Positions 5,996-49,900 of a DNA stretch of 64,000 nucleotides are shown here, in pieces; positions within the stretch are counted from its first letter, which is position 1; every line of letters starts with the position of its first letter. Below the pieces are notes generated by a model. The model was not told where the DNA came from and searched no databases. It saw only the letters and a list, made by a program, of their open reading frames with translations. This DNA comes from Tubulanus polymorphus (lineage: Eukaryota > Nemertea > Palaeonemertea > Tubulaniformes > Tubulanidae), in contig NC_134033.1 in assembly GCF_964204645.1 (NCBI RefSeq), forward strand, positions 14,262,155-14,326,154, given 5' to 3'. Made by a program: the position numbers and the translations under genes.

Positions 5996-6029
<34 letters not shown>

Positions 6030-7127: not shown

Positions 7128-7200
7128 TGGGATTCGAACCTGATAGCACCACTATTAGAGAAACGACTGTCCTACATGCACTATCCCTGCGTTTTAAGCA
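7128..7200 (-). mobile_element. tRNA-like sequence, probable SINE fragment
   Basis: On the minus strand a B box (GGTTCGAATCCC) lies about 50 bases after a weak A-box-like stretch. No acceptor stem closes cleanly, so I read it as a tRNA-derived SINE remnant. Confidence 0.4.
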
Positions 7201-7965: not shown

Positions 7966-8176
7966 GGCTAAAAATGATCCCTTGTTTCCTCCTAATCGGC
8001 CGGGTCATTTTGTGGACCGCAAAAAAAATTCCTGATCAGTACATTTCTGGGGGCGCCTGTTATGGTTAGCCTGACCATCATTGAAAAAGTAATGTGCGTA
8101 CAGGGTAGATAGGCGGTAGGCCGAGTCAACTTGTAAGCTCAACGAAAATGAGAAACAAAGTATCAATTTTTTAGCC
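7966..8176. mobile_element. MITE, GGCTAAAAA family, copy 1
   Basis: Starts ggctaaaaatgatcccttg and ends caaggtatca-like ttttttagcc, so termini are inverted repeats. ATA on each side is a possible 3-bp target duplication. The interior has cggccgggtcattttgt and gggtagataggcgg, shared with three other copies in the window. Confidence 0.75.
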
Positions 8177-8361
8177 ATATTTTGAGATGAGACAATATGG
8201 ATCGCTGCGATTGTAAGAGCCCGGTGTGGCTCAGTTGACTGGGTATAGAGTAGATCCGACGTAATTCGGGTCTACAGCTCCTATTCCAGTGGTTATAAAT
8301 TATATGCGCTACCCACAAAGCGATCGAAGCGTTTTCTTTCCTGTTGTCAAAAAATATAATA

Positions 8362-9308
8362 TCAGTCGGGTTTAATTTCGGTAGCAACCTGACAGTGGTT
8401 CCCCCTGGTGTCCAAACTACGCGCCAGCGCTCCCAATACGCCTATATAACCGCCGTGACGTAAAAACTTCGGCCGCACGCACCAATCACCGTGCTGAAAT
8501 TCAAAAACATACATTTTGAGTAGTTTCTAGTATGACGAATATCGTATCAAAGTTGATGGATTTTTTTAGATTATTGACCTCAATTCTTACCATAGATATC
8601 TGAGGCATGAGATTCAGGTAAGCGCGTGCTATGTGATTCTGGTTCATGAACGACCCGACGTAGTAAACAGTATGAGTTTTGATTTCTCGAGCCAACAGCA
8701 CGCCGACATTCAGTAGTCCATCGACGACACTGTTCATCAGCGCGCGCGCCAGATCTTCGCGTTCCGGTACAAGTTCATCTAAATTACGATAAATAGGAAT
8801 TGGAATACTGTATGTCACCAGATTTAAAAAAAAAAAACATGAAATCTATATCGCATCCAAATTTCATGGCCCTTAGTGTTACCGATTTTATGGGCCCGCA
8901 TCTATGAAACTCAGCTTCAGGTCTTCGGGTGTAAACTTTCTATCTATTCTCACCAGCACTGGTAAGAAGTGTATGTACCAGCATATCGCGTATCTTATAA
9001 ATTTGTAAATAAATTATTTGAAATATTTCAAGGGGTTCCTTACCCCCCCTTGATTAGACCGAAGCCAAAAATATGTCAGACATTTTGTAAATGACAAAAA
9101 TAGTTCTTTCCTCTATCCTCAAGTCAGGGATTTTACATCGTCATCAACTCATCACAAATATTGTGATTTCATTTACGAAGATCAGAATGTCTTCTCGATC
9201 GATTCCCCAAAATCTTACCGTCTGTGAGTATTCGACCGAAGGGCAACGTTTCCTTCACTTGACAGAGATTGTGTCGATGTTGCGGCGGGTGGCAGTTCGT
9301 CGAAGCGC

Positions 9309-9341
<33 letters not shown>

Positions 9342-22065: not shown

Positions 22066-22122
22066 TTAATGCTGTATCAAATAATTCTGGTCATTGCTAG
22101 CAGTTACGTTATGCATCAGTTC

Positions 22123-22155
<33 letters not shown>

Positions 22156-25100
22156 TTGCATCTCATTATTATTGCACAATACCGCCGACGCCACCTGCTG
22201 CAACTCCCAGAACGCCGGATGATACATCGCGTTATCCGTAATCGACGTAGAGGGCGCCACGACGGCGTCCATCGTTTGAGGCGAAACTTCGCCGATATCG
22301 ATGCAGCCTCCGACGAGTCTCAACGCGTTCAACTGCGCGTTGCTCAAAACGATTTCCGTCGCGTTGTTCGCGTCGAACGCGATATCCGTCTGCTCGACCG
22401 CCACGGCGGCGCCACCGACGACTAGCGATTTCGCCGCTTCTTTGTCGACGTGTTGCCGTTTGAAATGCGCGCGCAGATGGCTGCGGTGGATGAATTTCGA
22501 CGGGCACACCGGACACGCCCACGGCTTGTCGCCGGTGTGGTATCGCCGGTGGTCCTTCAACGCGCTGTTGTTCGTGAACGCGCGTTCGCATTGGTCGCAC
22601 TTGTACGGTTTGATGCCGCGGTGCAGACGCATGTGCAGCCGCAACGACTCGCGTCGCGCGTACGTCTTGTCGCACAGCGCACACGTGTGCGGCCGGTCGC
22701 CCGTGTGCAAGAAAACGTGCTGTTTCAGTAAGTAATTTTTGCCGAAGCCTTTACCGCAAAACGAACACAAAAACGGACGCTCGCCGGTGTGCGACAGTTT
22801 ATGCGAGGTTAAATCGCCTTTTTGCCGGAAGGCGGCGCCGCAGTCGTCGCAGACGTACGGTTTAACGCCGGTGTGCATGAGTTTATGCGTGCGCAGGTTG
22901 CTGGCTTGCGTGAACCGGCGGTCGCACACGTCGCACGCGTACGGCTTGTCGCCGGTGTGAATGCGTTCGTGCGTTGTCAGCGTGCCTTTCGTTTTGAACG
23001 ACTTGTCGCACTGCGCGCACTTGTGTACGCGCGCCGACGAGTGCACCGTCGTTCGGTGACTGCGCAGCGCGTTCGACGTCGCGAACGTTTTGTCGCACGC
23101 GTCGCAGTCGAACGATCGGCTCGGACGATCGTCGACGGCCGCCCGGCGCTCGTCTCCATTCGCTGAAACGATAACATTCGAAATTCAATAATAATAATAA
23201 TAATAATAATAATAATTTACGATAATCATACTTTGTTCAAATATAAACAAGATGATGATATATAATATTCTATAATCACCGGACTGAATGAACTCCAAAG
23301 CGGAGTAAATATTCAAGGCGGTCACATTTTTCCAAGACTATTCCCCGACTTGATCTCTACTAAGAATCCAATCAATAAACGACCAGATCAAAATACGAAA
23401 GACATAAACGGGAACTGTTCGATCCATCGAGCAATCTCAACAAATTACGCTGATTTTTAGCTTTTTTACAAGATTCCCTGATTATTTCGAAGTAAAGGAA
23501 ATTTCCGGATCTAGCAATCCCAACATATTTCCCTGACTTTCCCTGATTTCAAGGTAAGTGCGCCACCCTCCGGATGTCGTAGTCAGGTCTGTCTCTATAT
23601 AGCAGTGCAAAAATATTCTTCAATCCCTTTTTACCTGAAATTCGTTCTTTATCTACAGTTGAGATGTTATCCTCGCATCGAATCGACTGCGGTTCATTCG
23701 TGTTTTTCGAAAAGGTCGTTTCTGTATCTGGAAATAAAACAACATGTTTTCTCACAGTTCGTCTTTAAGAAGAACTACATTCCTCCTCACATAGTTACGA
23801 TATACCGATCATAGATAACACGCTCACTTACGGTTTGTTGTTGCGTTCGTTGTTTTTCGTGGACGTCCTCGCTTTTTCGACCCGTTACGTGCGACCGCAT
23901 CGAGATCTTCACCAGAAACTGAATCGAAATAGAGAAACATTGAAATAATATCGAAATATGGGGAAGCGTCGACGTTCAGTTTTAGAAATTGTGCTGATAA
24001 AATGTCTAATATCTCATGATTGTAGTTCATTTTCAATTAAAAGTGTCTTGACTGAAGTCCTAAACACATGTGAAGTGTGGATGATCAGTTTTTGAACTTG
24101 CGCTGATAAAATGTCTAATGCCTGGTGTTTGTAGTTCATTTCCATAAAAAATGTCTCAGGTGAGTTCTGAACACGTGTGAAGTGTGGATGATCAGTTTTT
24201 GAAAGTGAGCTGATAAAATGTCTAATATCTCATGATTGTAGTTACTTTTCAATTAAAATTGTCCCGGCTGAAGTCCTAAACACATGTGAAGTGTGGACTA
24301 TCAGTTTTTGAAAGTGTGCTGATAAAATGTCTAATGTCTCATGATTGTAGTTCATTTTCAATCAAAAATGTCTAGGGTGAAGTTCTGAATTTAAACTCTT
24401 CCAATTTCCAATTTTTTGTGTTCAGTTTGTTTGATGGAGCGCAGGGTCGAGGCAGCAGATGAAAAAAATTAAATGCCGACATAAAAATATGGCTGAAACC
24501 GTGAAACTATACCTGATGTGTTTGAGATTGGGTCCCGCGCCGCCGCTATCTGGGTCTCCACCGGCCCCGTCCGGGTCCGCGCCGCCGCTGCTCGTCGCGT
24601 GCACGGTTTCCTCGACGATCTCTCCGTTGAATCTCCGAGCCGAGCCGCCATCTGCGGAGTCCAGTCCTCGCTTCGATCGGCGTCGTCTGCGCTTTTGAAA
24701 CGATTCGGTTTTATTTTTCGTTTGTGTTTTTGTCGCCGTTCCTCGGTCCCCCGATCCGTCCGTTCTTCCCCGACGCGACGAGTATCCGTGACAAAATTCT
24801 CATCGCTGTTGAATTTATTCGGTGAATCATCTCCTCGAGGAACGGATGAAAATGATGAATTATCGCTCGGCTCCAGATGGACTTCGTTGTTACCAGTTAC
24901 TGGTGCTGTAAAAATACAGAAAACAGATAATGATGAGGCTTAAATAGATTGAGACCTCATTTTTCCTTTCCCCCCCCCCCCCGAGTGTAAGGCTCAGCCA
25001 GCCACCTACCCTGTACATAACTTTAAAAAAAATCATGATCAAGCTAACAGTAAACAGACCCGGCTGCTATAGAAATTTTATCCCCGTTTACTAAAGTGAC

Positions 25101-27680: not shown

Positions 27681-30600
27681 ATGGATGAAAAACCCAGAAA
27701 GGACTGTGTGACTAATGATGACCAGCAGAAGAAAAACAGAATGGACTTAAACAGCAATCTACCTACTCCACAGATTTACAGTGATCTACCTACTCCACAG
27801 ATTAACAGTGATTTACCTACTCCAATGATATCCAGTGATCTACCTACTCCACAGATTAACAGTGATTTACCTACTCCAATGATATCCAGTGATCTACCTA
27901 CTCCAAAGATATCCAGTGATTTACCTACTCCAAAGATATCCAGTGATCTACCTACTCCACAGATATCCAGTGATCTACCTGCAAAGATATCCTGTGATTT
28001 ACCTACTCCACAGATATGCAGTGATCTACCTACAAAGATATCCTGTGATCTACCTACAAAGAGCGATCTATCTACGCCAAAGATATCCTGTGATCTACCT
28101 ACAAAAATAACCAGTGATCTACCTAAATCACTGGCTATGAATGAAAACATTTCCGATGACAAAAAAACTGTCGTCAAAAGTGAAGTCATCGATGTCGAAG
28201 ATAAAAAACCAAACTTGAACTACATTGCATCATCAAAAATGAACTTCGACGGTGCCTCGATGCCTGATCAGAAGAATTTTCAACTTTCTTCACCCGGAAA
28301 TGCGAAAAGAGCTAAACAGGACTCGCGTCTGCCGAAATTAGTTCAACCTCAAAGTATTCTACCGACCTCGTCAAAGGTCACCGTTAAAAAGGATTCTACC
28401 GCTGTTCAGGGTGATGCCAGAAATTCAAACGATATGAAGCGTGTTGTGCCAGCACCCGCCGGAAGGGCCGCGTCGACGCCTCGCCCCCGGGTGGACACTT
28501 CGATTGCGGACGACGACGAACGCAAAATGTCGCGCGAAGGAGTCGAGGAGACCGTCAGCGAGGAAGTGTTCTCGAATTATCGACACAACGAGGTCGTAGC
28601 CGGCTGTCGGCCTCATCCGGGCGACATAGTCGAGGCCGGTTCGTTAGCCGCGATCTCTCTCCCGCCGGCGGTTTACGACCTAACCGCGTCCATCCCGGAA
28701 CGCGTCATCAAAGACTGTCTGCTGAGTTCGCTGCAACTTGAGGGCGTTCTTCACGCATGTCAACGTCATCGGGTAATACTACCGAATGGAAATCGCGCCG
28801 GATTTTTCATCGGCGACGGCGCCGGTGTGGGTAAAGGTCGGCAGATCGCCGGCGTTATTTTGGATAATTTCGCGCGCGGACGAACGAAGCACGTCTGGTT
28901 CAGTATTTCGGCCGATTTGATCGTCGACGCTAAACGAGATTTGAACGATATCGGGTGCTACGTGAAAGTGATCGAGGGTTGTAAACAACTCGATAAAGAG
29001 ACCAGGTACGAATTTAGAATTACGAAAATCTAAGGTACTCATAAAAAACCTCGTAAAAGGCCTTAGTTTAAGTCATTGAGGCTTGTTAAAACCCAGGGGC
29101 CGGTTCCATAGTCAGGACTTAAGACCAGTCTTACCAAATCTAACGACTTAAGACCAGTCTCAAGATTAAAGACCGCTTTTGGTCTTAAGTCTATGGAACC
29201 GGCCCTATGTGCTGATATTACGAACTGGTTTTAACTCTTGGTTTAAGTCTTCAACTATAAGTCGATTGAGTTAGCCACTGGGTTTATATTAAGTTAAAAC
29301 CAGTCTAATATCGGGCCTAGGTTGAAATTTAAAACAATGGGGAACTTGGGAAAAGGAGGATTCCGCTTGTGGTAGGATCCACCGTGGTACACGGGTTTCT
29401 TCCTGAAACGAGTACCACTAGTGGTAAGTGAGGATCCCCCAGGTGTCTCTAGTGTGCAGTAGGACATCAACTACTGTGACAGTAGTCTAAAGGATTCCAC
29501 TTATGGCAAGTGAGGATCCACCAGGTGTTGTTGGTGTAAAGTAGGATATCGATTACTGTGGCAATTATAGAGGAATCCACTAGTGGGAGTGAAATCCACC
29601 AGGTGTCGCTAGTAGTAACGTATCGTTAATTTATTGTAGAATATTTGGTCTACCGTCCGGTTTTAAAGATGGCGTTATATTCAGCACGTACGCGACGCTC
29701 GTGTCGTCCGTACAGCGCGGCACGGGCGGCATCTCCGCGTCGAGACAAACTAGACTCGATCAGCTGATCAACTGGTGCGGCGGTAAAGACTTCGAGGGCT
29801 GTCTCATTTTCGACGAATGTCACAAAGCCAAGAATTTCATTCCGGTAAAAATCGCGAGTTTAAATATGTTTTTAAACTAAATTAGCTCAACCGCTCAACC
29901 TTTTCAGTGCTGACCTATTGGTATCTGAACGTACTGGAGATAATTTAAAAATTTAAAAAGATTCCACTCCAGTGTTTTGAAGAACAGAAATAGCGCTTAG
30001 TGCAACTACACCGTGGTGCGATATATGGATTTTTTTCCTTAACCCTTTCAGTGCTGACTTAATAATACCCTATAGGGCTGAAGATAATTTGAAAATTCTG
30101 AAAAATTCCACCCTAGTGTGTTGAATAACGGGATAACCACTATAGTGCATCTACACCGCGGTGCGGCGTATCGTTAGTTACTAGTATTTCAATATGTTTG
30201 ACAGGTGCTGCCATCTTTCAAGAGATAACTATATTTATACGCTGCACTGCGGTGTAGATTCACTGAAAGAGTTAAGCCCCTACAATATAGGCGTTTACAT
30301 TGTTACCTTTTGTTTTCAGGGTAAAGAGCAAAACAGTACGAAAATCGCTTTGGCAGTTACAGAAATTCAGAGGTATTGTTGTTGGTATTATTGAAACTAT
30401 ACACGAAATCAACGTGATAATAAAGAGTGAAAATTTGATTTGTATTTGTAGGATTTTGCCGAAGGCGCGGGTTTTATACTGCAGCGCCACCGGTGTCAGC
30501 GACGTTAAGAATATGGTAAGATATTGAAATAGATGCGGTCCTTCGAATAACAGCTTCAACTATTAGCTTTAAGAATGAACTTTCATTTCATTTAACTCGT

Positions 30601-33600
30601 TGCTGTGGTACTGGATCCTTTCACTGCATACAACTTAGAGAGTTTTTCGGAAATTTATTCTATCGATTCTAGGCGTTTATGGAGCGTTTAGGATTATGGG
30701 GCGACGGCGCGCCATTTCCGTCGTTCGAACAATTTCTCGACTCCGTCCAGAAACGAGGTTTAGGTCAGTATCCCGATGAGACGAGTAGCGCGATGAATTC
30801 GGCGTAAACGACTCGCGCGTGTATGTAACTGTTCGGTGTGTTTATTTTCTGCGCAGGTGTGGCTGAAATGCTAGCTATGGAAATGAAGGCGTCTGGTTTA
30901 TACGTATCGCGAGGTTTGAGTTTCAGACAAGCCGAGGTAAGTGTATTTTCGAATTCATTCTGAGATCGCGGCTGCGTTTGCCGTGATCTTCAATTATCTT
31001 ACAGCGACAGGCTATATCAGAGATTCCTGTAGTCTGGAAAGCCTTTTGACGAAATAAGTCATCGTTTGCTTGGAATGGATGTCATTTTCTATTTATTCAA
31101 TGGATGTCATTTTCAATCTCGGGGTTCGTTATGACCTTAAAACAGGGAATTCTTTTGAATTAAAGAAACCTTTTTCATTCTTGACGATGACGAGTGGGTA
31201 TTGAAAATTGAAGGAGTGGGCTAGTTTGTAGGAGTGGGCTAGTTCGAAAGCATGCAAGTTGTATGTCGGCTTGTTGAATGAGTAGACATTGCTGATTGAA
31301 GGGATATGGGACGGGTCTGCGGCTGAATATCACTGTCCAAGATGTGACATTGTGTATTTTGGCACTGTTATTCAGCCATGGATCATCTCCAAACTTCCTC
31401 CAGTTACATGCGTGAAATGTAAAATATATTCCTAAAAATGGCAACTAATGACACAGACATAAGATTCAGCTGTAATGGTTTCCTTCAACGAAATCGCATT
31501 AAAATCCCGACCTGACTATGACTTGAGTTTAGTTTCTATCCGTAAGAGCTCAGCTACTCCCAAAAATATTCATTTGGAGCTTTCCCTTTCTCGAGTGGCT
31601 GGCTCTGGTGGATTTGGATTTGTTGTCGGCTAAAAATGTTCATCATGGAGACACTGGTTCAGATTCGAATTTCCATTGGAACCATCCCTTTCACTAATGG
31701 GTGGCTCCAGGTGGACTTTTTACTTAGCTCCTGGTTCAGATTCATTGTGTTTTATTTTGCAGTTTCTCAGTTTAGAGTGTAACTTAAGTTCGGAACAGAT
31801 CATAGTTTATGATAACGCGACTCATGTCTGGTAAGATTTGAAAAAAAACTGCCCAGTTCATAACAATGTGTATTGCGAAGATCCGTTTCCTGAAAAGACG
31901 GCTCCATATTTCATTGCAGGAATGAAGTTCGCAAAGCGTTGGAAGTGGCTATAACGCGTACGCGGACTACGAATCAGCGTATTTGGGCGAGTTTTTGGGG
32001 ATGTCACCAACGTTTCTTCAAACAGTTGTGCATGTGTATGAAAGTACCGTCCATAGTGAAAGAGGCCGAGGAAAGCCTGGCGTCCGGACATTGTATCGTT
32101 ATAGGACTTCAAACAACCGGAGAGGTAGGATTGTACCTTGCACCCCCTCACACATTTTATACCTTGTCGCTGTTCTTACAATTTTTGATCATCCACATTT
32201 CCACCACTTTCAGAACTTAACCCGAGATATTCTTAATTGAAAATCAATTAAAAACACCAGAAATTAAACATTTAGCACACTTTTACTAACCGATCATCCA
32301 CGCTAGTTTACGTGTGTTCATAGCTTCACCTGAGACATTTTAACTGAAAATCAACTACAAATACCAGACATTCTATCAGCTAATTTTCTAAAACTGATCG
32401 TCCACACTTCAAATATGTTCAGTGCTTTACCAGAGACATTTTTCATTGAAAATGAACTAAAAATATCAGACATTAGACATTTTATCATCACACATTCAAA
32501 AACTGATCATCCACGCTTCACGTGTGTTCAGATTTTCACCAGAGACATTTTTAATTGAAAATCAACTACAAACACCAGATATTAGACATTTTATCTGCAT
32601 TTTGCAATTCATTGAAATCGATTGTGTTGTTTGTAGGCGAGTTTGGAGAGTGAAATGTCTCGTACGGGTCACAGCGTCACCGGATTCTCGTCGCTGTGTC
32701 GCGAGATTCTCTTCCGATTCATCGACGAACACTTCCCGACGATGATCGAACGCAGTCAACTAGACGACCCCAGAGACACCTGGTGTCTGCAGGCGAAAAA
32801 CATGCTGCTCGAGTTCACGACGAAAATCAACCTTCCCGACAGGTGAATATCGCCGTAACCAGTAAAACTTTGTTCCCTGTTCCACCAGTCAGGGTACAAC
32901 CTCGATTCCTTAAAAACTCCATCTAAATGGGAAATGCTTTTAAAGGCGCTGGAAACTTTTTCAATTGATGCAAAATGCCTGAAACTGCTTTTTAACTCCT
33001 TCAATTTTGTGAAATAGGCAACAAGAGTTTGTAGTTGTATAGCAACTACGCCTAAATCGGTGTAGTTTGGAGTTGGTTACTAAATTAGGCACCGAGTTAA
33101 GGCAGTGTACTTATTATACCCCGGGGGTTGGTTTTATAGACCGGTTATAGCTTTAACTAAATTCATTTTCAATTGAGTTAACCCCTGGGTTAAAGTAATA
33201 CCAGTCTATAAAACGGGCCCTGAATTCTAACGGTTTACTGAGATAAACTGTACCCATTTATTTACGAGGAGTCTTCAGTAACTGGGATATAAAAGGGATG
33301 CAGACGCTTCCTAGAAATTTAAGATTTTCACCTTGAAAACTCCTTACATCCAGAAATGACCGATCTGTTAACGCCACCATTTCATTTCTTCATTCGAATT
33401 GATCGGTTTCAGTCCGCTGGACGAGATCGTCGACCGACTCGGCGGTCCGGATAAAGTCGCCGAGATGACCGGACGCCGCGGTCGAATCTGTCGCCGGTCG
33501 GAGAACGACCGACCGCACTACGAGTTGAGGGAACACGACGGCGGTGTCGATAGTCTCAATGTCAAAGAACGTAATCTGTTCATGGAAGGAAAGAAACTCG

Positions 33601-36600
33601 TCGCGATTATTTCTGACGCAGCTAGTACCGGTAGGTTTTTAACCCTTTCAACTGCGGTGTATACATCAGTGATGGATTTTGCTAGTACACCGCAATGCAG
33701 TGTATTGATGTAATTAGTAATTATCCCTCTTGAAAAATGGCAGCGCGTGTCAAACATAGTGAAATACTAGTAACTAACGTTACACCGCACCGCAGTGTAG
33801 ACACACTATAGTGGTATTCCCGTTGTTCAACACACTAGGGTGGAATTTTTTAGAATTTTCAAATTATCTCCAGCTCTATAGGGTATTAATTAGTCAGCAC
33901 TGAAAGGGTTAACGATATGTTTAGTATAGTTGATCGACAGTCTTTGATCTCGTCTATCTATAGTAAAACCCAACGTGCGCAATACAAGGAGATACAGAAA
34001 CACATTTGACAAACATGTTTGATCTTGAAAACACTGTTTCCTGAAATCTTGTTTCAAGTACCGGGTAAGCGCACACGACACAGGCACATACGCTCTGTTT
34101 CCACGTTTCCGGCGCCCAGTGCTTTGGACTTTACGATATAACTCTATGCTTTAACTCGTCGTAAAATGAACCGGACCCAGTTCCGCAGTTGTGAGTTCAG
34201 ATTCAACTCGGAGCTAAGTAATTAGAAATATTGAATTAACTCTAACTGCGTTGAGTTACCTCTAACTCAAAACTGTGGAACTGGGCCCAGTTGAACTCGC
34301 TTATCTCCGATCAACCGGGATTGGAAAATGTTGTCTGACTTAAACGAAATCCGAATAATGTGCTCTCGTTTGAATAGAAGTAACCTAGAGAGAGGACTGG
34401 AATTTTAGTCCGAAATAAGTGAAAATCGGAATAAAACCGATCGGAATTTAACGCATTTTACTGAACTAACTGGATACTCAAGGATTTAAGTCTCGTTGTT
34501 TTAGGTATATCACTCCACGCGGATCATCGAGTCGGCAATCAACGCAGACGCATTCATTTAACGATCGAGTTGCCGTGGAGCGCGGATAAAGCCGTCCAAC
34601 AACTAGGACGATCGCATCGTTCAAATCAGTCGAGGTGAGCAGTGGTTACTTCGGGGTTCGTTTCCAAGAAAGTTCATTTTTGGTCATTAAGCTATCGGTC
34701 TATCAATGTTTTCAATGAGGACAACAATCAAAACTGAAAAGGGGTTTAAGCTTAAACTTCTGGGGCCGGTTGCATAGTCATGGCTTAGACTTAAGACCAG
34801 TCTAAGACCAACTTAATTCTTCTTGGGAGCCACTCATTCGCATGTGCTCCACTCATCCACATGTATTCCACTCATCCACATGTATTCCACTCATCCACAT
34901 GTATTCCACTCATCCACATGTATTCCACTCATCCACATGTATTCCACTCATCCACATGTATTCCACTCATCCACATGTATTCCACTCATCCACATGTGCT
35001 CCACTCATCCACATGTATTCCACTCATCCACATGTATTCCACTCATCCACATGTATTCCACTCATCCACATGTATTCCACTCATCCACATGTATTCCACT
35101 CATCCACATGTATTCCACTCATCCACATGTATTCCACTCATCCACATGTATTCCGCTCATCCGGTATTGTTTGTCTGTTACAGCGGACCGTTGTATAAAC
35201 TACTAACGACTAATCTCGGTGGAGAGCGCCGGTTCGCTGCGGCCGTCGCGCGGAGATTACTCAGTTTAGGAGCGTTGACTAAAGGAGACCGTCGAGCGGC
35301 TACCGGCGCTGATTTGACTGATTTTAATTTCGACACGCCGTACGGACGGTCGGCTCTACGCACCATGTATAACGCTATAATCAAGGTTCGTTACTCGGCC
35401 AGTTAACAAGAAAATACTAATCCTTGTTGTTAGGATGATTTATAAAGAATCCCCACGATAATGTACCAATGAAAGAATGATATCAAGTCCTCGTGAAGAT
35501 GACTATTAGGTTATAGTCGAAACGTCAAATAAACTACCAGCTCGAGGAAACATTTTCTTACTTAATATAATTTTTTCGTTGGTATTATGGCATTCTCTAT
35601 ATGTTACTCTGCCAGTGTTACTGCGGCAAGCGGTGATCTGCTGGGTTCACCTTTCTGATGTCATATTTTTATTGATAATTGTAGCAGTGGGTCAAGAAAA
35701 CTGCCCACTAAGTTTCACATCGAAATGCCTTTCATGAGAAATGTGGTTAATAGCTTATTCTATAATGTGTCTTTTTCTAAGGTCTCTGCATGGACAGAGC
35801 TGCCAACTGTGAAATACTGATTACAAGAAATACTGATTTGATTTGTTTGAAATATGAAGGATGTTACTGACAGTCTTAATGTTGATATTTGAACATTTTC
35901 TTTCATATTTCAATAAGATGTTACTGAAAAAAATTCGATTTGTTTTCGATGGCACTTTTCAGTGGTTGGCAGCCCTGCATGGATATGTTAACCTGCTCTT
36001 GAAAACGCCAAACAGAATTGTTAAATCATCAACTGTGGGTTTTGCTCAATAACTCTGAAATATTGAGGTTGATTTCAGTCGTATTTACTACATGTTGTTT
36101 ACAGCGAGAACTGCCAAATGGAATCATTGAATCCGAGGTGATCGGCGATTGCGCAGACTTTCAGATATTCTCCGGATTGTTGACGGATTGTTTGCCGTTG
36201 ATGGGTATCGTCGACAGTCAAGGTCACGTCGGGCAGGTTCTGAAGGAGAAAGACTTGAACGACGTCGGCAAATTTCTGAATCGAATCCTCGGCTTGTCGG
36301 TCAGATACCAGAACATCGTAAGTCGTATCCGATATATATATATAAGGGTGGCTCCGAAATTATCCGAATCAGAACTGTTACGATTTGTGACTATAAACGC
36401 TGTTCATAATTTTGGAGAAATTCATACAAATATGGTTCTTACGGGTTTCCGGAAGTTTTGAAAATGGGGATTTTCTTCCAGGCCCTATGAAAAGTTATGG
36501 AATATTTTTTCTCTATGGCTATGGAGAAGGTATGGAAAATCAGAAAATGGTCTCAGAATAGGATTTTCCTACATTACCTGTTCTAGGTTGGGAATGTATA

Positions 36601-39600
36601 GCTTAGGGGTATGGAAAATTTTTAATCCGGGCGTGGAAAAGATATGAAAAATGAAATCGGGAAACCTGTAAGAACCCTGAAGAAATCAATTTTGTCTCAA
36701 GCTTCAAATAATGATGTGTAATTCTCAAATCAAACTCCTTTCCAATAGTTCGGTGTAATTTTTTCGTTGCAGATTTTCACGTATTTTAGTAAATGTCTGG
36801 AGAACGCGATTCAAATCGCGAAGAAAGAAGGGCATTATAACGAAGGCCTCGTTGATCTGACCGCGACGTCTATTAAAATACACGGCGTACCGGAGACCAT
36901 CTTTCAGGACAGTCTTTCAGGAATCGAAACTAAGTAAGTTACACAGGGTTTCGATTGAAATATGGGAAATGCAAATATCGGATATCTGCAATAGAAAATC
37001 GTTTAAAAAATGTGAAATATTTTTTAAAATAAGTGAAAAATGTGAAATACTTCTAAAAATCAGTGTGAATTTATGAAAAAGTGCGAAAAATTTAAGAAAA
37101 GTAAAGTCAAGATAATTTGAAATACTTCGATCCATTTTCAGGCACAAAACGTTGATCGTAGACCGCGGAATGAGTCTCCAGGTGGCGTTAGAGAAGAGTC
37201 GAAAATACACGGGGAAACACGACGGATTCTACGTGTCTCGTAACGAGGTCAGAGGTCATAAGTTCTATCTGTTAGCGATGCAGAGAGAGAACTCGACGCA
37301 CATGTTTAAGATAGCCAGGTGCGCATTCAACAATAGCCCCATTAGCTAGCTGATATTTTATTTTAGTACTTTAACACCCACTAAACCAAGGGGGCTGGCA
37401 AATTATTCCAAAAACTCTGAAATGAAAGAAAAATATTGACACTATATACAGGGCTCTTATAGATTAAGGAGGATTAGGAAATTCCAGATTTATTTTTCCC
37501 TGTAGTTGGAAAATCCTGAAGTCAGGCAATTTTGACTTCAAGGAATTGGAATTTCAGGTGTCTTGTTGTTCTTGCTGGTGACGAGTGGCACAAGGAACCT
37601 CTTGATAAGAAACAGCATCCACTGAAAATATCTTATAATTTCATCAGGGAATTTTATTTTCTGGTTTCTTGTTGTTCTCGCTGGTGACGAGTGGCACAAG
37701 TAACCTCTTGATAAGAAACAGACCCCACTGAGGATATCTTATAATATAATCAGTGACCCCTTTGGTTGAGGGACTTCATGCATTCCCTGATCCGCAAAAA
37801 CCCTGTATACGTATATTAAAACAGAATTAAAAGCCTTCAATCTGTAGGGATACTAAAATCCTTGAAGCCCTCAACAGTTTTATGGTTGGTTTCCATAGAC
37901 AAGTGGCTGTCCAATATCAATAGTAGATAAAAACCCACAATAAAAAGAAAAAACTATCTTGTAGCTTAACGTTTCAACTCAATTCTATGAGCCATTATCA
38001 AAAACTGTTTTTGATAATGGCTCATAGCATTGAGTTGAAACGTTAAGCTACAAGATAGTTTTTTCTTATTATTGTGGGTTTTATCTACTAGTTTTATGGT
38101 GTTATTAAACAAAGCGATGTTTTGTCATTTTCTAGACCGAATACCGGTATGTCGGCGTTCGACGAAGAATTGTCGTGGTTGAATAATAAATATATCAAAG
38201 TCGCGCCGCATAAACTGGAATCGGCGAAGGAAGGATGGAACGAAGCGTACGACAGAATGAAATCAGAATGTATACACGGTCCGTTGTGTAAACACGGCCA
38301 TGATTGTACAGGTAAATAATCCTCTCCAACATAGCTTAGTTACGCGATGTAAGTTGTTGGACCAAAGGGTAACTTCGTTCAGCAATTTGTCTAGGAAATC
38401 ACTCTCATTAACCAGTCACCAGGCTGAATTGTGAATTATTGAGTTGAATGCGTAATACCGCAAATATGTACAGTCTCGATATTGAGTGGGGTAGCCTTCA
38501 GATCGAGCTCATTATGAGTAAGAAACAAAACCCTTATTATGGTACATTGATAGACGCCGCAGTGGTATTCAGCGATTGTCCGAGCGGGAAGGCCGTTAAT
38601 TACAGGTATCTATTTGCAAAGGGGTCACGATAAAGTGCTTGTTGTGATCACTGCTGTTTCAATTCTCTTCTAAGACTAAGAAAATTGATCCGCGCAATGA
38701 ATAACAACAACAGAAAGCTCATCGTCGATAACAATTGTAATTCCGCGCGGCGCGAGATTCAACCATTTGTTTCTCAGAGTTTGTCTAATGCAGTCGTGGT
38801 ATTATTATTATTATTGATTATTTTCAGTCGGCAGTCGATGTTATAAAGTTCATCTATTGTGCGGAGGTATTGTTTCGATGATGGCGTTGTTAGAAGCGAG
38901 CATCGCCCGATTCGGCACTAAACTACAACTCACGTAAGGAAACTTCGCTCGAAAATGATTAATAACCAATCCTAAGATGATGATATTTTTGAAGTTAATT
39001 CATCTAACATTATCGGGGTCCCTCTGAATCCTTAAGAACTCCATCAAAGTGGAAAATGCTTTTAAAGGTGCTCGAGACTCTTTCAATTAGAGCATAATGT
39101 CAGAAACTCCTTCAATTTTGAGAAATAGTCAATTAGAAATTTTTGTCTAGTTCGTAGTTGTACCGAAATCTACGGGTACCACTAAATCCGTACTGTTAGG
39201 ATCAGGCTTGATTTTTACCCAATTAGGCAGTAACCGAATTAGAAACCAAGATATATAGACTACGCCTAAGTCAGTTGAGTTGGAACCAAGATCTATTTTT
39301 GTTACCTGATTAGGTGGTACCATAAATAATAAACCAAATAAAAAACCAAGTTTAGTAGTGTCCAGAATGAATATATGTTTATGAAACGACCAAATTACCA
39401 GTTGTATAGAAAGGCATGTAAACCCACAGTGGAAATAAACAACTATTTTGACTACGAATACCGGTATGAATTTATACAGATTAATATGTGTGACCGCACT
39501 TTAGAACTTATTGATCGAGAGTAAATATGGCACGACTAGCAAATAAATATGAGTTTAGTTTAGGTTTGGCATGATTTAATGTCTAACAGCCTCGGGGTCA

Positions 39601-41095
39601 TTCTTATTACGTACGCATTAGGGGAGGGGGGAGGGGTCAGTGCAATTGCGTACTGTAATGCTTAATGTATATGAAAAAATTTCAAATTTTATGCGTACAT
39701 AATAAATGAATGATCCCCTCCCTGTTTGTTATTTTCCAGCGCAGCCGAGAAGAGTTTACGTGTCGTACGCTGTGAGCTCGACGGCGGCGAACGAATCGTC
39801 GGCGTACGATTCCCCGAAGAGTTGATTCCCGACGTCGAGAGAAGTTTGAAAGAGCGACGACTTTGCGAGAAACTACGACAGAAAGGAGTCAATGTAAGAT
39901 GGTCAAAGAATTGAGAAAAATTAAATTAGAACTTATTCGAATTTTGATTGTGCGATTGTACAATTTAAACAAAATTTTCGATTGAATTAAAGAGATCGAT
40001 ATTGGAAAATTTTTATAAATTTTTGCAAAATTTGTTTGTAAATTTGATTGAAAAATGAAATTTATTTTAAAATTTGTAAAATTTAAAGAAGTTTGTCAAT
40101 TGAAAAAATGGGATTCATATTAGAAAATTTTCAAATTTTGTCAATTTTTGAGAAATTTATTGAATATTTTGTTGAAAAAATAAGATAAAATTTTTTTTTT
40201 TTTTCAGACTAGCGAGCTACCGCCGGGTGTTGCCGCGGCGATGGTTCAACAATTAATGCGTACGAACGCGTCGCTCCTGGATACGAGTAGCGTCGCGCAG
40301 CAGACGATTGAACCGGCCGCGCCCGTCAAACCGAACTGCCTGAAAAAAGCGACCACCGAACCGCCGACGATGCTGTCGTTTTTCAAGGTCGTCGATAAGA
40401 AAACGCACGAGCGCGCCGTCACGACCGGTTTGAAAAACATCCCGACGTCCAACAACGATAACGACGTCACCGGGAAAAAATCCGACGCAAAAAATTTGAC
40501 TAAAAGGCGTAAAATGGACTCGAAATCGGATAGTATCGCGACGAAGGATCCCGATTGGTGCGAATCCGCGGGAAGCCGCGCGCGCAATTCGCCGATTAAT
40601 CCGGCGCGAAAACAGACTCAGATATCCCTGCGGCAACCGACGCCCGTTCCCGTCGAGATCGTCGTGCTTAGCGATAGCGAGGAGGAAACTGAGAACGAGA
40701 AGAAGGAGGAATCGACCGTCGACGAGGGTCGGACGGAATGCGCTGCGACAACCGAACTCGCGGAGAACGACTCATCGTCGTCGTCATCGGCGCAAAGGAG
40801 GAAATCGGCCCGCAAATCTCTGAAACGTAATTACTCGCAGACGTTAGACACGGAGGATGAGGAGAATGAGGAAAATAACGATAACATAAAACGAGGAGAT
40901 GATGATGATGATGGGACTGAGAGCGGCACGTCGAAAATGGAATCCTCGGCGAACTCGTCTTCCGCGCGTAAAAGCAAACGAGGCCGACCTCGTAAAACGG
41001 CGGCAGATTCGGATAAACGAAAAACTAACGCGAACGAGGATTCTTCCTCGCGTGCGAAAAAACCTTGCGGACGCCCTCGCAAATCGAACGATTGA
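27681..41095 (+). CDS. Strawberry notch family helicase, FORGETTER 1-like, 19 exons
   Basis: Exons: 27681-29005, 29640-29844, 30320-30372, 30452-30515, 30673-30763, 30857-30936, 31763-31830, 31920-32124, 32637-32842, 33413-33630, 34505-34634, 35184-35385, 36105-36317, 36773-36933, 37142-37318, 38136-38311, 38828-38933, 39740-39893, 40208-41095. All phases agree, giving 1573 residues. Helicase motifs: Walker [15 protein letters not shown] (about residue 378), motif [11 protein letters not shown] (about 500), YCSATG, and motif [12 protein letters not shown] (about 870). Other family blocks are [46 protein letters not shown] and [18 protein letters not shown] proteins are nuclear SF2-type regulators of transcription. 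The wording is closer, from memory, to plant FORGETTER 1 than to SBNO1/2. The N-terminus has SDLPTP repeats. The C-terminus has a SIM-like motif ([12 protein letters not shown]) and two AT-hooks (RGRPRK, CGRPRK). A likely 5'-UTR acceptor lies at 27651. Confidence 0.92.
27763..28126 (+). repeat. Coding minisatellite, SDLPTP repeats
   Basis: Imperfect 30-base (10-codon) units within exon 1 of the SBNO-like gene, reading [12 protein letters not shown] plus two residues. Shorter 24-base units ([16 protein letters not shown]) occur toward the 3' side. Every length variant is a multiple of three, so the frame is kept. Wobble changes such as gatcta/gattta suggest the array is not freshly amplified. 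Confidence 0.9.
29096..29206. mobile_element. MITE, GGGGCCGGTT family, copy 1
   Basis: ggggccggttccatagtcag to ctatggaaccggcccc-like end, with inner gacttaagaccagtctta repeats pairing with each other. In SBNO-like intron 1. Confidence 0.75.
29375..29630 (+). repeat. Imperfect tandem repeat, about 3 units
   Basis: Units contain ccactagtgg(c/t)aagtgaggat, ccaccaggtgtcgctagtgt and agtagga(c/t)atc. A single related unit lies at 53288-53325. Confidence 0.75.
29897..30038. mobile_element. piggyBac-like MITE, partial copy
   Basis: caaccttttcagtgctgacc and the following ggagataatttaaaaattt match the left half of the adjacent element at 30039; the right half is missing. It lies directly upstream of that element. 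Confidence 0.6.
30039..30275. mobile_element. piggyBac-like MITE, copy 1
   Basis: TTAA then CCCTTTCAGTG at the left, and CACTGAAAGAG then TTAA at the right: CCCTTT-type inverted termini at TTAA targets, the mark of piggyBac. The interior repeats ctacaccgcggtgcgg and ggtgctgccatctttcaaga. In an SBNO-like intron. Confidence 0.8.
32208..32610 (+). repeat. Tandem 104-110-bp satellite, direct array
   Basis: About four units of tgatcatccacgcttcacgt + gtgttcag + accagagacatttttaattg + aaaatcaactacaaacacca + gacattagacattttatc, spacing 104 and 109 bases between gatc(a/g)tcca starts. It ends just before the acceptor of SBNO-like exon 9. Confidence 0.85.
32905..33110 (+). repeat. Dispersed intronic repeat, copy 1
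   Basis: ccttaaaaactccatctaaa and gaaatgcttttaaaggcgct match 39020-39075, followed in both by ctccttcaattttg and gtagttgta segments. Confidence 0.65.
33119..33222. mobile_element. MITE with GGGGTTGGTTTTATAGAC ends
   Basis: gggggttggttttatagacc pairs with ccagtctataaaacgggccc around inner ttaacccctgggttaa. A related piece (agttagccactgggttt) lies near 29270-29320. Confidence 0.65.
33639..33912. mobile_element. piggyBac-like MITE, copy 2 (inverse)
   Basis: TTAACCCTTTCA to TGAAAGGGTTAA, a perfect 12-base inverted terminus including the TTAA. The interior is the reverse complement of copy 1 with high similarity. Confidence 0.85.
34171..34291. mobile_element. MITE, GGACCCAGTTCC family, copy 1
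   Basis: ccggacccagttccgcagtt pairs with aactgtggaactgggcccag; inner aactctaactg elements are also inverted. Confidence 0.7.
34762..34815. mobile_element. MITE, GGGGCCGGTT family, truncated copy
   Basis: ggggccggttgcatagtcat and gacttaagaccagtctaaga are present; the right half is replaced by the 19-bp minisatellite that starts within 30 bases. Confidence 0.65.
34842..35160 (+). repeat. 19-bp minisatellite, about 17 units
   Basis: Near-perfect actcatccacatgtattcc units with two atgtgctcc variants (first unit and near 34996). Because 19 is not a multiple of three, all three forward frames stay open. It ends 24 bases before SBNO-like exon 12. Confidence 0.95.
37557..37760 (+). repeat. Two-copy tandem duplication
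   Basis: ttgctggtgacgagtggcac + aaggaacctcttgataagaa + acag occurs twice about 115 bases apart, each followed by ccactga..atatcttataat. Confidence 0.85.
37921..38090. mobile_element. Foldback element with roughly 80-bp arms
   Basis: tagtagataaaaacccacaa ... ccattatcaaaaac pairs nearly perfectly with gtttttgataatgg ... ttgtgggttttatctacta. The arm includes aatggctcatag and attgagttgaaacgtt, which match the monomer of the satellite at 46.1 kb. In an SBNO-like intron. Confidence 0.85.
39015..39330 (+). repeat. Dispersed intronic repeat, copy 2
   Basis: ccttaagaactccatcaaag, gaaaatgcttttaaaggtgc and ctccttcaattttgagaaat match copy 1; the following actacgcctaagtcagt also recurs there. Confidence 0.65.
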
Positions 41096-43972: not shown

Positions 43973-46900
43973 ATGATCGACAAAAATGGAGACGCCAATC
44001 ATAACATACGATTTGATACACAAACAAAAAAACTAGTAAGTGTCACACATGTTATTCGTTGTTTTGGTAGAATTTTCTATTAGTCATATATATCGTTCAA
44101 GCGTCGATTTATTTGAGCTATACAGTCGCAATGAAGTTGTCTTCGGGTGATCTCGGGCGGCGGCTATTGTGAACGGTTATTCCGTGTAATCGATCCGGTG
44201 AAATTAGACACTAATTGCGCCGTTCAATAGAAGCCAAACCGATCGAGGGCGTGTTCCTCCTAATGTAAGATGTTATTCCACACTGGAGCTATAAATATAC
44301 ATTAGCGAGTACCGGTACGGCTGAATACCTGTCGTTGCTGACGTGCTTAACAAGATGATAACATTTGCCCGCGCTTTTCGAGGCGATCATTTTTTCATTC
44401 ACTCGAGTAAAATAAGGCTAAACAAAAATGATACCTTGTTTCTCCGCAGCGGCCGGGTCATTTTTGTAAAATATGATAAAATTTGTAAACAGTTCATTCC
44501 TATAGCGGCCGGGTCTGTTATGGTAAAATTGATCACGATTTCAAAAAAGTAATGTATAGGGTAGATAGGCGGCCGGCCGGGTCAACATTTAAGCTCAGCA
44601 GAGCGGAGAAACAAGGTATCAATTTTTTTTAGCCTAAGATATATAGATTTTCATGCGATTAATAATGCGTATGAAAAATGAGATGTTCGATGAATCATGC
44701 GTCGTTGAGCCTACCAGGAAGTCCCCTGATCTGACGACCATTTCTATAAATGTGATAAAATTTCACCCCGTTTGGTCTTGACGATAATTACCCTTAGACG
44801 CGCCGTGAAAAATTATATAACCCTCGTAAATTATGCGAGTGATTCTCACAACTTCCGCTTTTGGTTGGCGGCGCCACTGTACGGCGTCGAAGGGCCATTG
44901 CCTCATTAGGGATTTAAATGACCAGTGTACATGGCCTTATTAGTTTATTTTCAAGAAATACAGACGAATGCGTATCATGTTATTTTCTGAACTGGTTAAA
45001 GAACGTACGGTCAATTTTACGGTGCCAGGTCAATAATTTAACGTTGACCCGGTGCCGGCAGATGTCAACAACATAAGTCGACCCGTGAGGCATATGTTAT
45101 ATCAAACTTTAGATTGAATATGGGCGGCTTTATCATTATGTAAATCAACAGAATATCCTCCTAAAGACCGCATATAATGCATGGCCTCTCTTTACCTGTT
45201 TACACATACACGTAACACATATATCGATAATATCTAAGTAGCATATATACAGCTGTTCGGAAAGAATGGAACGTTTTGTCAGGATGAAATCTTCATGATA
45301 TGAACTATAACATCGTAATGTACTACTGCTATCACAAGACTCCGCTTAATTTACGTCCATATTTGGATGTCTCACGTTTTAACCTGCAGTTAATATAGTT
45401 CAATCAAAAACAATATGCGACTCGTTGAAGTCCTCTATTCCAACACACGACGCCATTCACGCAGTTCGGGCTGGGATTTTTAACGATGCTTCGATGATTT
45501 ATTTGACCGTCACTATATGGTACGTGTATAATTGCAAAATGAAAAAAAAAAACGAATAACTCGATCGTGATTTGGCACCCGGGTCGAATAGTAAACCCAC
45601 TCTATTTTCCGCTGGAGTCATACGTGATCCGGGACAGCTGTCGTTGTAGCGTTGTATTTCCCTATATCATTGATAATAATACTTTCACCGGTTGATATTA
45701 TGTTTTTGTTCGAAACCTACATTTTACAGCGATTAGAATGAGTGTATATGTTTTGAAAGAAAAAATTCGCGATATTCAGGCTTAACGCAAGCCTGCATGT
45801 ACACGCTTCTCGTACCTACGTTTGTATTGATATGTCAAGGACCCGAAGAACATTATTCATATCAGCGACTACTGAATATTGTTTACCTAACACAAATCTA
45901 CCCTTGAACTTGATATACAAGTATTGAATAAATATATATCGCATTCGAAAAACCGATATCTTCCTCTTCGTATTCGCGTAGTAACATGTGAAGTAATTAA
46001 CTATACGAAAAATTCATGAACCAGAATAAACGATTTATCAAAACGTGACTAGAGAGCTGAAAAGGGAGTCTCAGACAGTTATTTGTTACTTGCTCCTCGC
46101 TTGTCAAATCAGTTATGAAAATGTCTCATAGTTGAGTCTAAATAAACTTCACTGCTCTCTTATGAAAATGGCTCTTGAAATTAAGACTAAGCGTCACAAC
46201 TCTCTTAGTCTTGAAAATGGCTCATAGAATTGAGTCTAAACGTCACTCTTTCTTAGTTTTGAAAATGGCTCATAGAATTGAGTCTAAACGTCACAACTCT
46301 CTTAGTTTTGAAAATGGCTCATAGAATTGAAGTCTATACGTCAAAACTCTCTTAGTTTTGAAAATGGCTCATAGAATTGAGTCGAAATGTCACTATTCTC
46401 TTAGTTTTGAAAATGGCTCATAGAATTGAAGTCTAGACGTCACAACTCTCTTAGTTTTGAAAATGGCTCATAGAATTGAAGTCTAGACGTCACAACTCTC
46501 TTAGTTTTGAAAATGGCTCATAGAATTGAGTCTAAACGTCACAACTCTGTTAGTTTTGAAAATGGCTCATAGAATTGAGTCTAAACGTCACAACTCTCTT
46601 AGTTTTGAAAATGGCTCATAGAATTGAAGTCTATACGTCAAAACTCTCTTAAATTTGAAAATGGCTCATAGAATTGAGTCGAAATGTCACTATTCTCTTA
46701 GTTTTGAAAATGGCTCATAGAATTGAAGTCTATACGTCAAAACTCTCTTAGTTTTGAAAATGGCTCATAGAATTGAGTCGAAATGTCACTATTCTCTTAG
46801 TTTTGAAAATGGCTCATAGAATTGAAGTCTAGACGTCACAACTCTCTTAGTTTTGAAAATGGCTCATAGAATTGAAGTCTAGACGTCACAACTCTCTTAG

Positions 46901-49900
46901 TTTTGAAAATGGCTCATAGAATTGAGTCTAAACGTCACAACTCTGTTAGTTTTGAAAATGGCTCATAGAATTGAGTCTCAACGTCACAACTCTCTTAGTT
47001 TTGAAAATGGCTCATAGAATTGAAGTCTAGACGTCACAACTCTCTTAGTTTTGAAAATGGCTCATAGAATTGAGTCTAAACGTCACAACTCTGTTAGTTT
47101 TGAAAATGGCTCATAGAATTGAGTCTAAACGTCACTACTCTCTTAGTTTTGAAAATGGCTCATAGAATTGAGTCTAAACGTCACAACTCTGTTATTTTTG
47201 AAAATGGCTCATAGAATTGAGTCTAAACGTCACAACTCTCTTAGTTTTGAAAATGGCTCATAGAATTGAGTCGAAATGTCACTACTCTATAACTTAGTTT
47301 TCATCATTTAGTTGTGGGTACAGATTTTGTAAACAGTTTGAGACTATTTCAAGTCTTGAATATTATTGAGCGAGAACCCAAAATAGGAATCAAAACAACA
47401 ACTGTTGTGATGTATTTTGTAAACCACTATTGTAACAGTTGTTGTTCGTTTTCGCAGTTTAGACTTGTCTATTGGAAACCAACATTACCAGGTGTCGTTA
47501 TGAATACAGTGGAACCTCGTTAAAACGATCTCATATTCGATTTATCTGTTTTTACTAACATAGAATTTCATCGCAAATATGATTATTTTGATAATCTCAT
47601 ACTGGATATAACGAACTATCGGTTATATTTAACGAGAATATATTTACTGGGTTAAGCGAGGTTCCTCTGGATGAACCTGTTTTTTCTTTGAATGACTTTT
47701 TTTCAAAGAGTGTACTCAGTCATGGGTGGATCTAGCCTTGGTTTTTGAACTGCTTACACTGTGGAGGGACACCTACGTATATAGTAGCTTAATACGGTGA
47801 ATTGTTACGGCTCTGAGATGCAATCTGAGCACATTTGGGGTATCAAATATGTGATATATCCCATCCATTCATAAAATATGCAATTTCGACCTAAAGGAAA
47901 TATCATTCATAAAACAAATAATAAAAACTTGCCAAAATCACGCGATATCTCTGATCAAAGTCAGATCAACTCATCGATAATGACTCACTTGCCAGAGGCA
48001 TTTCATCCAAGTAAAACTGGATTTTTTCACGACGAACTTGCAAAATAATAAAAGGACACCTGAGTACCGCTGAAGCGGAGCCTGAATCTGTCCCACTCAG
48101 ATGAACGTGTTTTAATGTGTATAGTTAACGGTGAAATTGTATTTTGATACTCATAATAATCACGCTAATAGCTCAAATTTACTGAAGAAAGAGACTTCGA
48201 CAACGATATTTGAACGGTTCATTTCGTTTCTTTTCAGTCGAAATCGACAATCGAAGAGTTGGAGTCGAAATTCTACGAAAGTTTTGAAGAAACTCCGCTC
48301 GTCTCGGCAATAATCACCTACATCATCTATGGAATGCTCGCCATCTTCGGGCATTTCCGGGATTTCCTTCGTAGAAATGGCTACGAGAAAAATCAGTCGG
48401 CCACCGAATCAACTAAATATAAGGTACATGGATACGATTTTCATTTCGACGGAAGCGTCATTTGGCGACGTGAGATAAAAACTATCGTTGGAATTAATTC
48501 TGGCTTGATATTATGTTTCGAAATAAAATCGCCAAACTTTGCAATTTAATCGAAAGCATTTTTCTCTGAGCGGCATTTTGTCGGGATTATTTCTAATTTG
48601 TTTTAATCAATGAGTATTCCTACTACCTGCAGTTGTCCTGGGGATATTTCAATCGAATGAAACGTTTCTTGAAATCTTTTTATCTCACGTCCCCAAGGCG
48701 CTTATACGTACGTAACCACTATGATAAAAATGCTACAACACTTTCTTTGTTTTGTTCTTTTGTCTTGCGTTCTATTTTTGTCTTTCAGTGCTGACTAATT
48801 AATACCCTATGGTGCTGGAGATAATTTGAAAATTTTAAAAAATTCCACCCTAATGCGTTGAATTACGGGAATACCACTATAGTGCGTCTACACTGCGGTG
48901 CGGTGTATCGTTAGTTACGAATATTTCACTATGTTTGACAGGTGCTGCCATTTTTCAAGAGAGATAATTACTAATTACTAATTACATCAAATACACCGCA
49001 GTGCGATGTACTAGCAAAATCTTTCACTGATTTATACACCGCACTGCGGTGTAGACGTAGTGAAAGGGTTTAAGCTGAAATGCTAAGCTGTTTCGATTTT
49101 GTTTTGTTCGTGGTGCGTCAATTTACGTAAAATGAAACCAGAAAACTTAACTTGAATCTTTATTGATGCCTTGAAAAATAGCAAACATATCGTTTCATAT
49201 TGTCGACAATAAATGATATAGTATAAAGTTTATAATATAAAAGATCAATGAAGTTATTTTGGATTTGAAGATATCGATAATGGAGAATTGAATTGACCGG
49301 CAACCAGTCTAGTTCCAAAATATTGATGACGCACAACCCCTCAAAATAATCATTGAAATTTATCAAAAATAAAATAAGAGCGAATAATGAAATCTATTCA
49401 ATTACAAAATAAACACCACAATTCACAATTGTTATTGTTATTTTGAACGCCAAAATTGATGACGCAGTACACTAACTCAACTAGGTGTTAATGTATATGA
49501 ACATTATTGTTACGATTTTTACTGCGTCAAAAAAGAAAAAAAGAATTAGTTCATAAATTAGTCAGGCATGACTCCATAGATTCATGTCATCTAACTGATT
49601 TGTTTTGTAGGAATTCGTACCGTTGTATTCGAGTTTTGAGAGTTTTTTCACGCGTAACATCTACACGCGAATCAGGGATTGTTGGAATCGACCGATATGC
49701 TCAGTGCCCGGAGCCCGACTTCAATTGTTAGAAAGATACACCGAAGACTACGGATGGACTTTCAAGTAATTCTAAAAGCATTATCCGTATAGAAACGTTG
49801 TGTTAGCTCTTGGTGGCACAAATTGTAACCGATGGATCTAGTTGATATTTTGTTATTTGGAAGGAAAAGGGGTTGGAATCAATGTGGAAAGTTTCGTCCA

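What the first reader, a model, noticed from the sequence alone, without database searches (positions are those of the whole stretch)
27681..41095. Animal SBNO-family gene that reads like plant FORGETTER 1
The helicase blocks ([38 protein letters not shown], CxHGPxCKxGxxCT) resemble, from memory, FORGETTER 1 of plants more than SBNO1/SBNO2. This could be an ancient third SBNO lineage kept in some invertebrates and lost in vertebrates. Motif VI is [10 protein letters not shown] where QFGRTHRSNQ is usual.
Basis: partly seen in the sequence, partly recalled or inferred. Interest (0 to 1): 0.72.

Follow-up and report, generated by a model that had tools for sequence, protein, structure and literature searches.

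The report
Second, deeply divergent Strawberry-notch-type helicase gene
This animal-type genome carries, besides an ordinary Strawberry notch (SBNO1) gene, a second intact gene of the same helicase family that appears to have split off very long ago, so the family may have had a further branch.

Summary
The gene is real and intact: 19 exons, 18 GT-AG introns, 27681-41095 (+), 1573 aa, with the three Pfam domains of the Strawberry notch/FORGETTER family. The same assembly showed one other locus of the family, whose core is SBNO1-type. The two proteins share 43.7% identity and no intron position. Rooted with 24 bacterial/viral homologues, the window protein is not fast-evolving (branch 0.785 vs 0.916), so the split looks old. 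It lacks the long insert of the SBNO1-type protein and any PHD finger. Its tail has PCNA-box-like, SUMO-binding-like and AT-hook-like motifs. 'Third lineage' is supported; 'groups with FGT1' is not. Several FGT1-like letters are common in prokaryotic homologues. Both odd letters of motif VI occur there too. No eukaryotic sequence collection was available; species, spread, age and descent versus transfer stay open.

The parts
27681..41095 (+). 19-exon gene, 1573-aa Sno/FGT1-family SF2 helicase-like protein
   Evidence: gene model, 18 GT-AG introns; Pfam
27757..28125 (+). 27-bp coding minisatellite, about 14 copies, encoding [12 protein letters not shown] repeats in the N-terminal extension
   Evidence: TRF, translation
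28611..31816 (+). AAA_34 domain (motor lobe 1; Walker [19 protein letters not shown]), exons 1-7
   Evidence: Pfam residues 311-624 mapped by hand to the exons
32637..33413 (+). junction between the lobes (exon 9, intron, start of exon 10); place where the C2 SBNO1-type protein has a long acidic/basic insert and this protein has none (35 residues here, 195 in C2, 50-67 in 103 prokaryotic/viral homologues)
33414..36856 (+). Helicase_C_4 domain (motor lobe 2; motif [12 protein letters not shown]), exons 10-14
   Evidence: Pfam residues 767-1048 mapped by hand
37170..38838 (+). SBNO alpha/beta domain, exons 15-17
   Evidence: Pfam residues 1084-1195 mapped by hand
38270..38841 (+). cysteine cluster CX5CX5CX5C, possible zinc site (end of exon 16 and start of exon 17)
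   Evidence: sequence; 5 Cys in this region here, 3 in C2, 0 in each of 103 prokaryotic/viral homologues
40361..40384 (+). PCNA-box-like PPTMLSFF in the tail (the canonical Q is missing; the canonical pattern was not found)
   Evidence: loose pattern seen in 0.15% of shuffles of the tail
40661..40687 (+). SUMO-interaction-like VVLSDSEEE
   Evidence: strict pattern in 0.15% of shuffles, loose pattern in 1.8%
40976..40996 (+). AT-hook-like KRGRPRK
   Evidence: (PF02178, E 0.13, below its cut-off)

Best explanation
A functional, ancient paralogue of Strawberry notch in an animal: an ATP-driven SF2 (Swi2/Snf2-like) nucleic-acid translocase that most likely acts on chromatin beside the ordinary SBNO1. 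It differs from SBNO1 in having no inter-lobe insert, a shorter cysteine cluster and its own tail with AT-hook-like, SUMO-binding-like and PCNA-box-like motifs. Shown here: intact gene, complete motor motifs, coexistence with an SBNO1-type gene, deep divergence without fast evolution, no shared introns. Inferred: that the split predates the common ancestor of plants and animals, that the host is an invertebrate, and that the tail targets the motor to chromatin or to replication/repair sites.
For: Gene intact, 19 exons; three family domains. Two loci of the family in the assembly by AAA_34 (12 exon matches) and Helicase_C_4 (7 exon matches). Window vs C2 43.7% over 844 columns; median identity to 103 prokaryotic/viral homologues almost equal, 32.8 vs 33.8%; in a tree of real sequences only, branch lengths 0.785 (window) and 0.916 (C2), so low identity reflects age, not speed. 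0 introns shared between 17 window and 21 C2 core introns. No insert, as in the prokaryotic/viral homologues. Tree and AU tests with recalled FGT1/SBNO1/SBNO2 favour a place outside SBNO1/2.
Against: Branching order is not fully resolved: nesting with SBNO is not rejected on conserved columns (p 0.0615), and the site signal differs between the two halves of the core. One genome only, so inheritance is not shown; transfer from a protist or large virus is possible. No expression or protein data. The tail motifs are short, were picked among six patterns, and the canonical PCNA box is absent. The species was not identified.
Confidence: 0.7

Rival explanations
1. It is the animal member of the FGT1 clade proper: animals inherited both an FGT1-type and an SBNO-type gene, plants kept only the first (the first reader's reading; it shares the claim of an ancient paralogue and differs in branching order).
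For: Same CX5CX5C spacing as recalled FGT1; slightly higher identity to recalled FGT1 (44.0%) than to recalled SBNO1 (42.9%) or C2 (43.0%); not rejected with the nearest outgroup alone, p 0.117, 0.191, 0.213; in the second half of the core, sites with L042 as ancestral state link window+FGT1 11 times and FGT1+C2 5 times.
Against: Best tree puts FGT1 with SBNO at 99.8/100; AU p 0.0035 with 24 and 0.0052 with 5 outgroups; whole-core sites FGT1=C2 122, FGT1=window 92; no PHD finger in the window protein, a domain reported for Arabidopsis FGT1.
Confidence: 0.17
2. Horizontal acquisition: the gene came into this animal lineage from a protist or a large DNA virus and later gained introns.
For: 0 introns shared with C2; a 2009 survey found Sno in a haptophyte, in its large DNA virus and in two heterokonts and left lateral transfer open (PMC2770060, passages).
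Against: 19-exon gene at 14.3 Mb of a long contig, with an SPTLC2 fragment beside it; none of the 103 viral and bacterial homologues compared is specifically close to it (best 38.2%, against 43.7% to C2). No eukaryotic donor could be searched, so this evidence is weak.
Confidence: 0.15
3. A lineage-specific duplicate of the animal's SBNO1 gene that only looks old.
For: Nesting with SBNO is not rejected on conserved columns (p 0.0615).
Against: Branch not longer than that of C2 (0.785 vs 0.916); no shared introns; no insert, as in the prokaryotic/viral homologues; nesting rejected in 4 of 5 AU runs.
Confidence: 0.07

Closest known systems
SBNO1 / SBNO2 / Drosophila sno / C. elegans let-765 (metazoan Strawberry notch)
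   Same: AAA_34 + Helicase_C_4 + SBNO domains in the same order as in this genome's own SBNO1-type protein, complete SF2 motifs, cysteine cluster after the SBNO domain begins
   Different: 43.7% core identity to this genome's own SBNO1-type protein; no acidic/basic insert between the lobes; CX5C instead of CX8C spacing; no shared introns. sno and let-765 themselves were not compared
Arabidopsis FORGETTER1 (FGT1)
   Same: CX5CX5C cluster and several block letters (sequence recalled); helicase and Helicase C domains
   Different: no PHD finger; FGT1 is closer to SBNO1 than to this protein in the comparison with recalled sequences
Prokaryotic/phage Strawberry-notch-like ATPases, as in polyvalent proteins (PMC5512222, one passage)
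   Same: same motor core, no inter-lobe insert, GRSHRSN-type motif VI in some
   Different: no Cys at the cluster in any of 103; at most 38.2% identical; often part of very long multi-domain frames

Membership tests
Strawberry notch/FORGETTER (Sno) family of SF2 helicase-like proteins | AAA_34, Helicase_C_4 and SBNO domains in order | tested here: met
   all three above Pfam cut-offs
Strawberry notch/FORGETTER (Sno) family of SF2 helicase-like proteins | complete motor motifs (Walker A, DExH, SATG, QxxGRxxR; motif definitions recalled) | tested here: met
   [26 protein letters not shown] in the model
Animal SBNO1/SBNO2 subfamily | long acidic/basic insert between the lobes (present in C2; as a subfamily feature recalled) | tested here: not met
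   35 residues here vs 195 in C2
Animal SBNO1/SBNO2 subfamily | nests with SBNO1-type proteins in a tree | tested here: inconclusive
FORGETTER1 (plant) subfamily | PHD finger | tested here: not met
   no PHD among Pfam matches up to E 1; FGT1 has one
FORGETTER1 (plant) subfamily | groups with FGT1 outside SBNO1/2 | tested here: inconclusive
[quoted passage not shown]
   experimental property reported for FGT1 (passages)

The most novel reading that the evidence does not exclude
Early eukaryotes already had two Sno-type motors. One gave plant FGT1 and animal SBNO; the other, seen here, survives in some invertebrates and has disappeared from vertebrates and the usual model animals. It is recruited to replicating or damaged chromatin through a PCNA-box-like, SUMO-binding and AT-hook tail, an arrangement that works like that of the yeast Srs2 helicase (recalled), making it a replication/repair counterpart to the transcriptional SBNO1.
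Probability: 0.12. Interest if true: 0.75.

Novelty: new variant of a known kind. Interest (0 to 1): 0.45.

Why it matters
In the passages seen, FGT1 is called the single Arabidopsis orthologue of Sno, humans have SBNO1 and SBNO2, and the origin of Sno is left open between inheritance and lateral transfer (PMC2770060). A second, deep paralogue living beside an SBNO1-type gene in one genome would change how orthology between FGT1 and Sno is drawn. It would give a natural comparison of what the core motor does without insert or PHD finger, and offer a candidate gene lost from vertebrates.

Tried and rejected
Solved structures: no useful match for the 909-aa core (phmmer best E 0.94). Viral scan with that core alone: nothing confirmed. 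Eukaryote-type motif VI pattern: 0 matches in viral contigs and 0 in prokaryotic contigs, so no contaminating animal or large-virus homologue turned up by that pattern. A second eukaryote-type pattern (DECHxAKN) hit 35 viral stretches; tblastn with the window and L001 cores gave a match in 1 of 35 (24.7%, E 6e-6), not pursued. Phage records, tblastn with 579 aa of the core: 1 weak match in 50,697 records. Shared introns as a sign of recent duplication: none within one residue and in the same phase; four pairs lie within five columns, one of them in the same column but in another phase. 'Window is merely nearer to prokaryotes than C2': rejected, nearer in 24 of 103; columns with a prokaryotic majority residue are balanced, 37 kept by window only and 35 by C2 only. 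A first set of mixture-model AU tests timed out with nothing printed and was rerun smaller, with fixed hand-written topologies. A Wnt-family search to confirm 'animal' was asked ten times and never answered; the animal reading rests on the SBNO1-type gene and on a short SPTLC2-like stretch whose best PDB chains are named Serine palmitoyltransferase 2. The SBNO-domain search of the genome (PF25373) was asked once, not answered, and not repeated.

Full report
What is there. The window gene was modelled from splice signals and homology: 19 exons, ATG at 27681, stop at 41095, 18 GT-AG introns, in frame throughout, 1573 aa. Pfam finds AAA_34 (residues 311-624), Helicase_C_4 (767-1048) and the SBNO alpha/beta domain (1084-1195), all far above their cut-offs, a sub-threshold AT-hook, and no PHD finger. 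The N-terminal extension holds a 27-bp coding minisatellite (27757-28125).

A second family member in the same genome. The window lies in a 267.8-Mb, 77-contig assembly. Searches of it with AAA_34 (12 exon matches, 5 here and 7 on contig C2) and Helicase_C_4 (7 exon matches, 3 here and 4 on C2) hit two loci. The tool scores only the best candidates, so further weak copies are not excluded. The C2 core was assembled from 25 segments, 26153888-26159761, the first begun inside an exon.

How far apart are they. Window and C2 cores are 43.7% identical over 844 columns. I looked at two of the viral loci closely (L001, L042), both with phage-type giant proteins. Of the 109 loci, six had no sufficiently complete core in one frame (L104, L108, L115, L117, L120, L121) and were left out; L064 was replaced by L001, the same contig; 103 remained. 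Median identity to these is 32.8% for the window protein and 33.8% for C2; the window protein is the closer in 24 of 103. In a tree of the two animal proteins and 24 of the 72 dereplicated homologues, picked by hand, the branch to the window protein is 0.785 and to C2 0.916. The window protein is thus not fast-evolving, and the low identity points to an old split. Of 17 window and 21 C2 introns in alignable columns, none coincide within one residue and in the same phase, against 0.36 expected by chance; four pairs lie within five columns, one of them in the same column but another phase.

Where does it branch. The collections here hold no eukaryotic proteins beyond the PDB, where no relative was found. 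Best tree: (window,(FGT1,((C2,SBNO1),SBNO2))) with 99.8/100 for FGT1+SBNO. Lengths from the eukaryotic node: window 0.764, FGT1 0.824, SBNO1 0.952, C2 1.078, SBNO2 1.085, so the window protein is not pulled out by a long branch of its own. AU tests: with 24 outgroups, window+FGT1 p 0.0035, window+SBNO p 0.0007. With L042 alone as outgroup, window+FGT1 p 0.117 (LG+F+G4), 0.191 (C10 mixture) and 0.213 (524 conserved columns); window+SBNO p 0.014, 0.030 and 0.0615. With five outgroups in a fixed arrangement and the C10 mixture, p 0.0052 and 0.0024. Site counts: FGT1=C2 122, FGT1=window 92, window=C2 83 over the whole core; in the second half 54, 54 and 48. The fair summary is three deep lineages, window outside FGT1+SBNO favoured, FGT1-sister possible, inside SBNO unlikely.

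Why it looked like FGT1. In the 103 prokaryotic/viral homologues the T of TNL is found in 99, N in 50, K of ALTKG in 70, the first K of FMEGKK in 87. In motif VI the GR and the second R are in all 103 and H in 101; L stands at the F position in 27 and S at the T position in 15. Other letters of the blocks (LGGP, GRRG, GGERR) are not the common prokaryotic ones and several are shared with C2. So part of the likeness is ancestral and part is common to the eukaryotic proteins, and neither shows a branch with FGT1. The CX5CX5C spacing shared with recalled FGT1 is absent from the 103 (no Cys there), so it is either the eukaryotic ancestral state or a real link to FGT1; C2 has CX8CX8C.

How it probably works. 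The motor motifs are complete, so an ATP-driven translocase is expected (established SF2 knowledge). FGT1 is reported to bind histone H3 and to interact with SWI/SNF and ISWI remodellers, and mouse Sbno1 with FACT and Yap/Tead and Rbpj (PMC5040591 and PMC5389439, passages). Action on chromatin is therefore the default inference. The tail carries [17 protein letters not shown] and KRGRPRK; the patterns used (loose PCNA box, strict SUMO motif, AT-hook) occur in 0.15, 0.15 and 0.1% of shuffles of the tail, the loose SUMO pattern in 1.8%, and the canonical PCNA box is absent; six patterns were tried. PCNA-box-like plus SUMO-binding motifs are recalled as the yeast Srs2 arrangement; only a listing of papers on that subject was seen. 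Against a direct repair role by analogy: the genome protection reported for mouse Sbno1 runs at least in part through Yeats4 expression (PMC12289961, passages). The repair reading remains a lead.

Expression hint. Coding CpG observed/expected is 1.64 in the window gene and 0.75 in the C2 core; part of the contrast is regional, 1.33 for the whole window and 0.84 for 30 kb around C2. From general knowledge of invertebrate gene-body methylation this would fit a broadly expressed, methylated C2 gene and an unmethylated window gene; untested.

Literature. Nine papers in the library hold 'FORGETTER 1'; by title and start of abstract they are plant papers. Eight hold both FORGETTER1 and strawberry notch. 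Of 200 papers holding 'SBNO3' or 'strawberry notch', 40 were listed and none of these 40 contained SBNO3. Further listings: SBNO1+SBNO2+phylogenetic+helicase 1 paper, strawberry notch+invertebrate 19, strawberry notch+paralog+phylogen 13; from these I opened passages of PMC5389439, PMC2770060 and PMC5512222. PMC2770060 reports Sno in Holozoa, Plantae, a haptophyte, its virus and two heterokonts; the passages seen do not mention a second animal Sno. I recall, without any call, that automatic annotation names some invertebrate proteins 'protein FORGETTER 1-like'; if so this lineage may already sit in databases undescribed.

Noticed in passing
L042 (IMGVR_UViG_3300031965_000015), ORF 3-11411: A phage-type giant protein whose Sno core is the nearest of the compared prokaryotic/viral relatives of the two animal proteins (36-40% identity), branching between them and the other homologues in the trees. 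Bears on the origin of eukaryotic Sno.
   Followed up: partly
G000:C2:26153888-26159761: In the SBNO1-type core 23 of 24 introns are only 76-112 bases long, while the window gene's 18 introns run 79-874.
   Followed up: partly
window 27681-41095 versus C2 core: Strong contrast in coding CpG observed/expected (1.64 vs 0.75), partly regional, hinting at different germline methylation and expression.
   Followed up: partly
window 27757-28125: 27-bp coding minisatellite (about 14 copies) giving [12 protein letters not shown] repeats; possibly length-variable.
   Followed up: no
window 46163-47288: Tandem array of a 49/99-bp unit, about 11-23 copies; a related short sequence, read by eye, occurs near 37960-38080 inside an intron of the gene.
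   Followed up: no
window 4135-4449, 8504-8845, 10355-10663, 22069-23184, 51535-51849: Neighbouring gene fragments: CFAP97/Hemingway (+), two pantothenate-kinase-like Fumble fragments below cut-off (-), C2H2 zinc-finger protein (-), serine palmitoyltransferase 2-like (+).
   Followed up: partly
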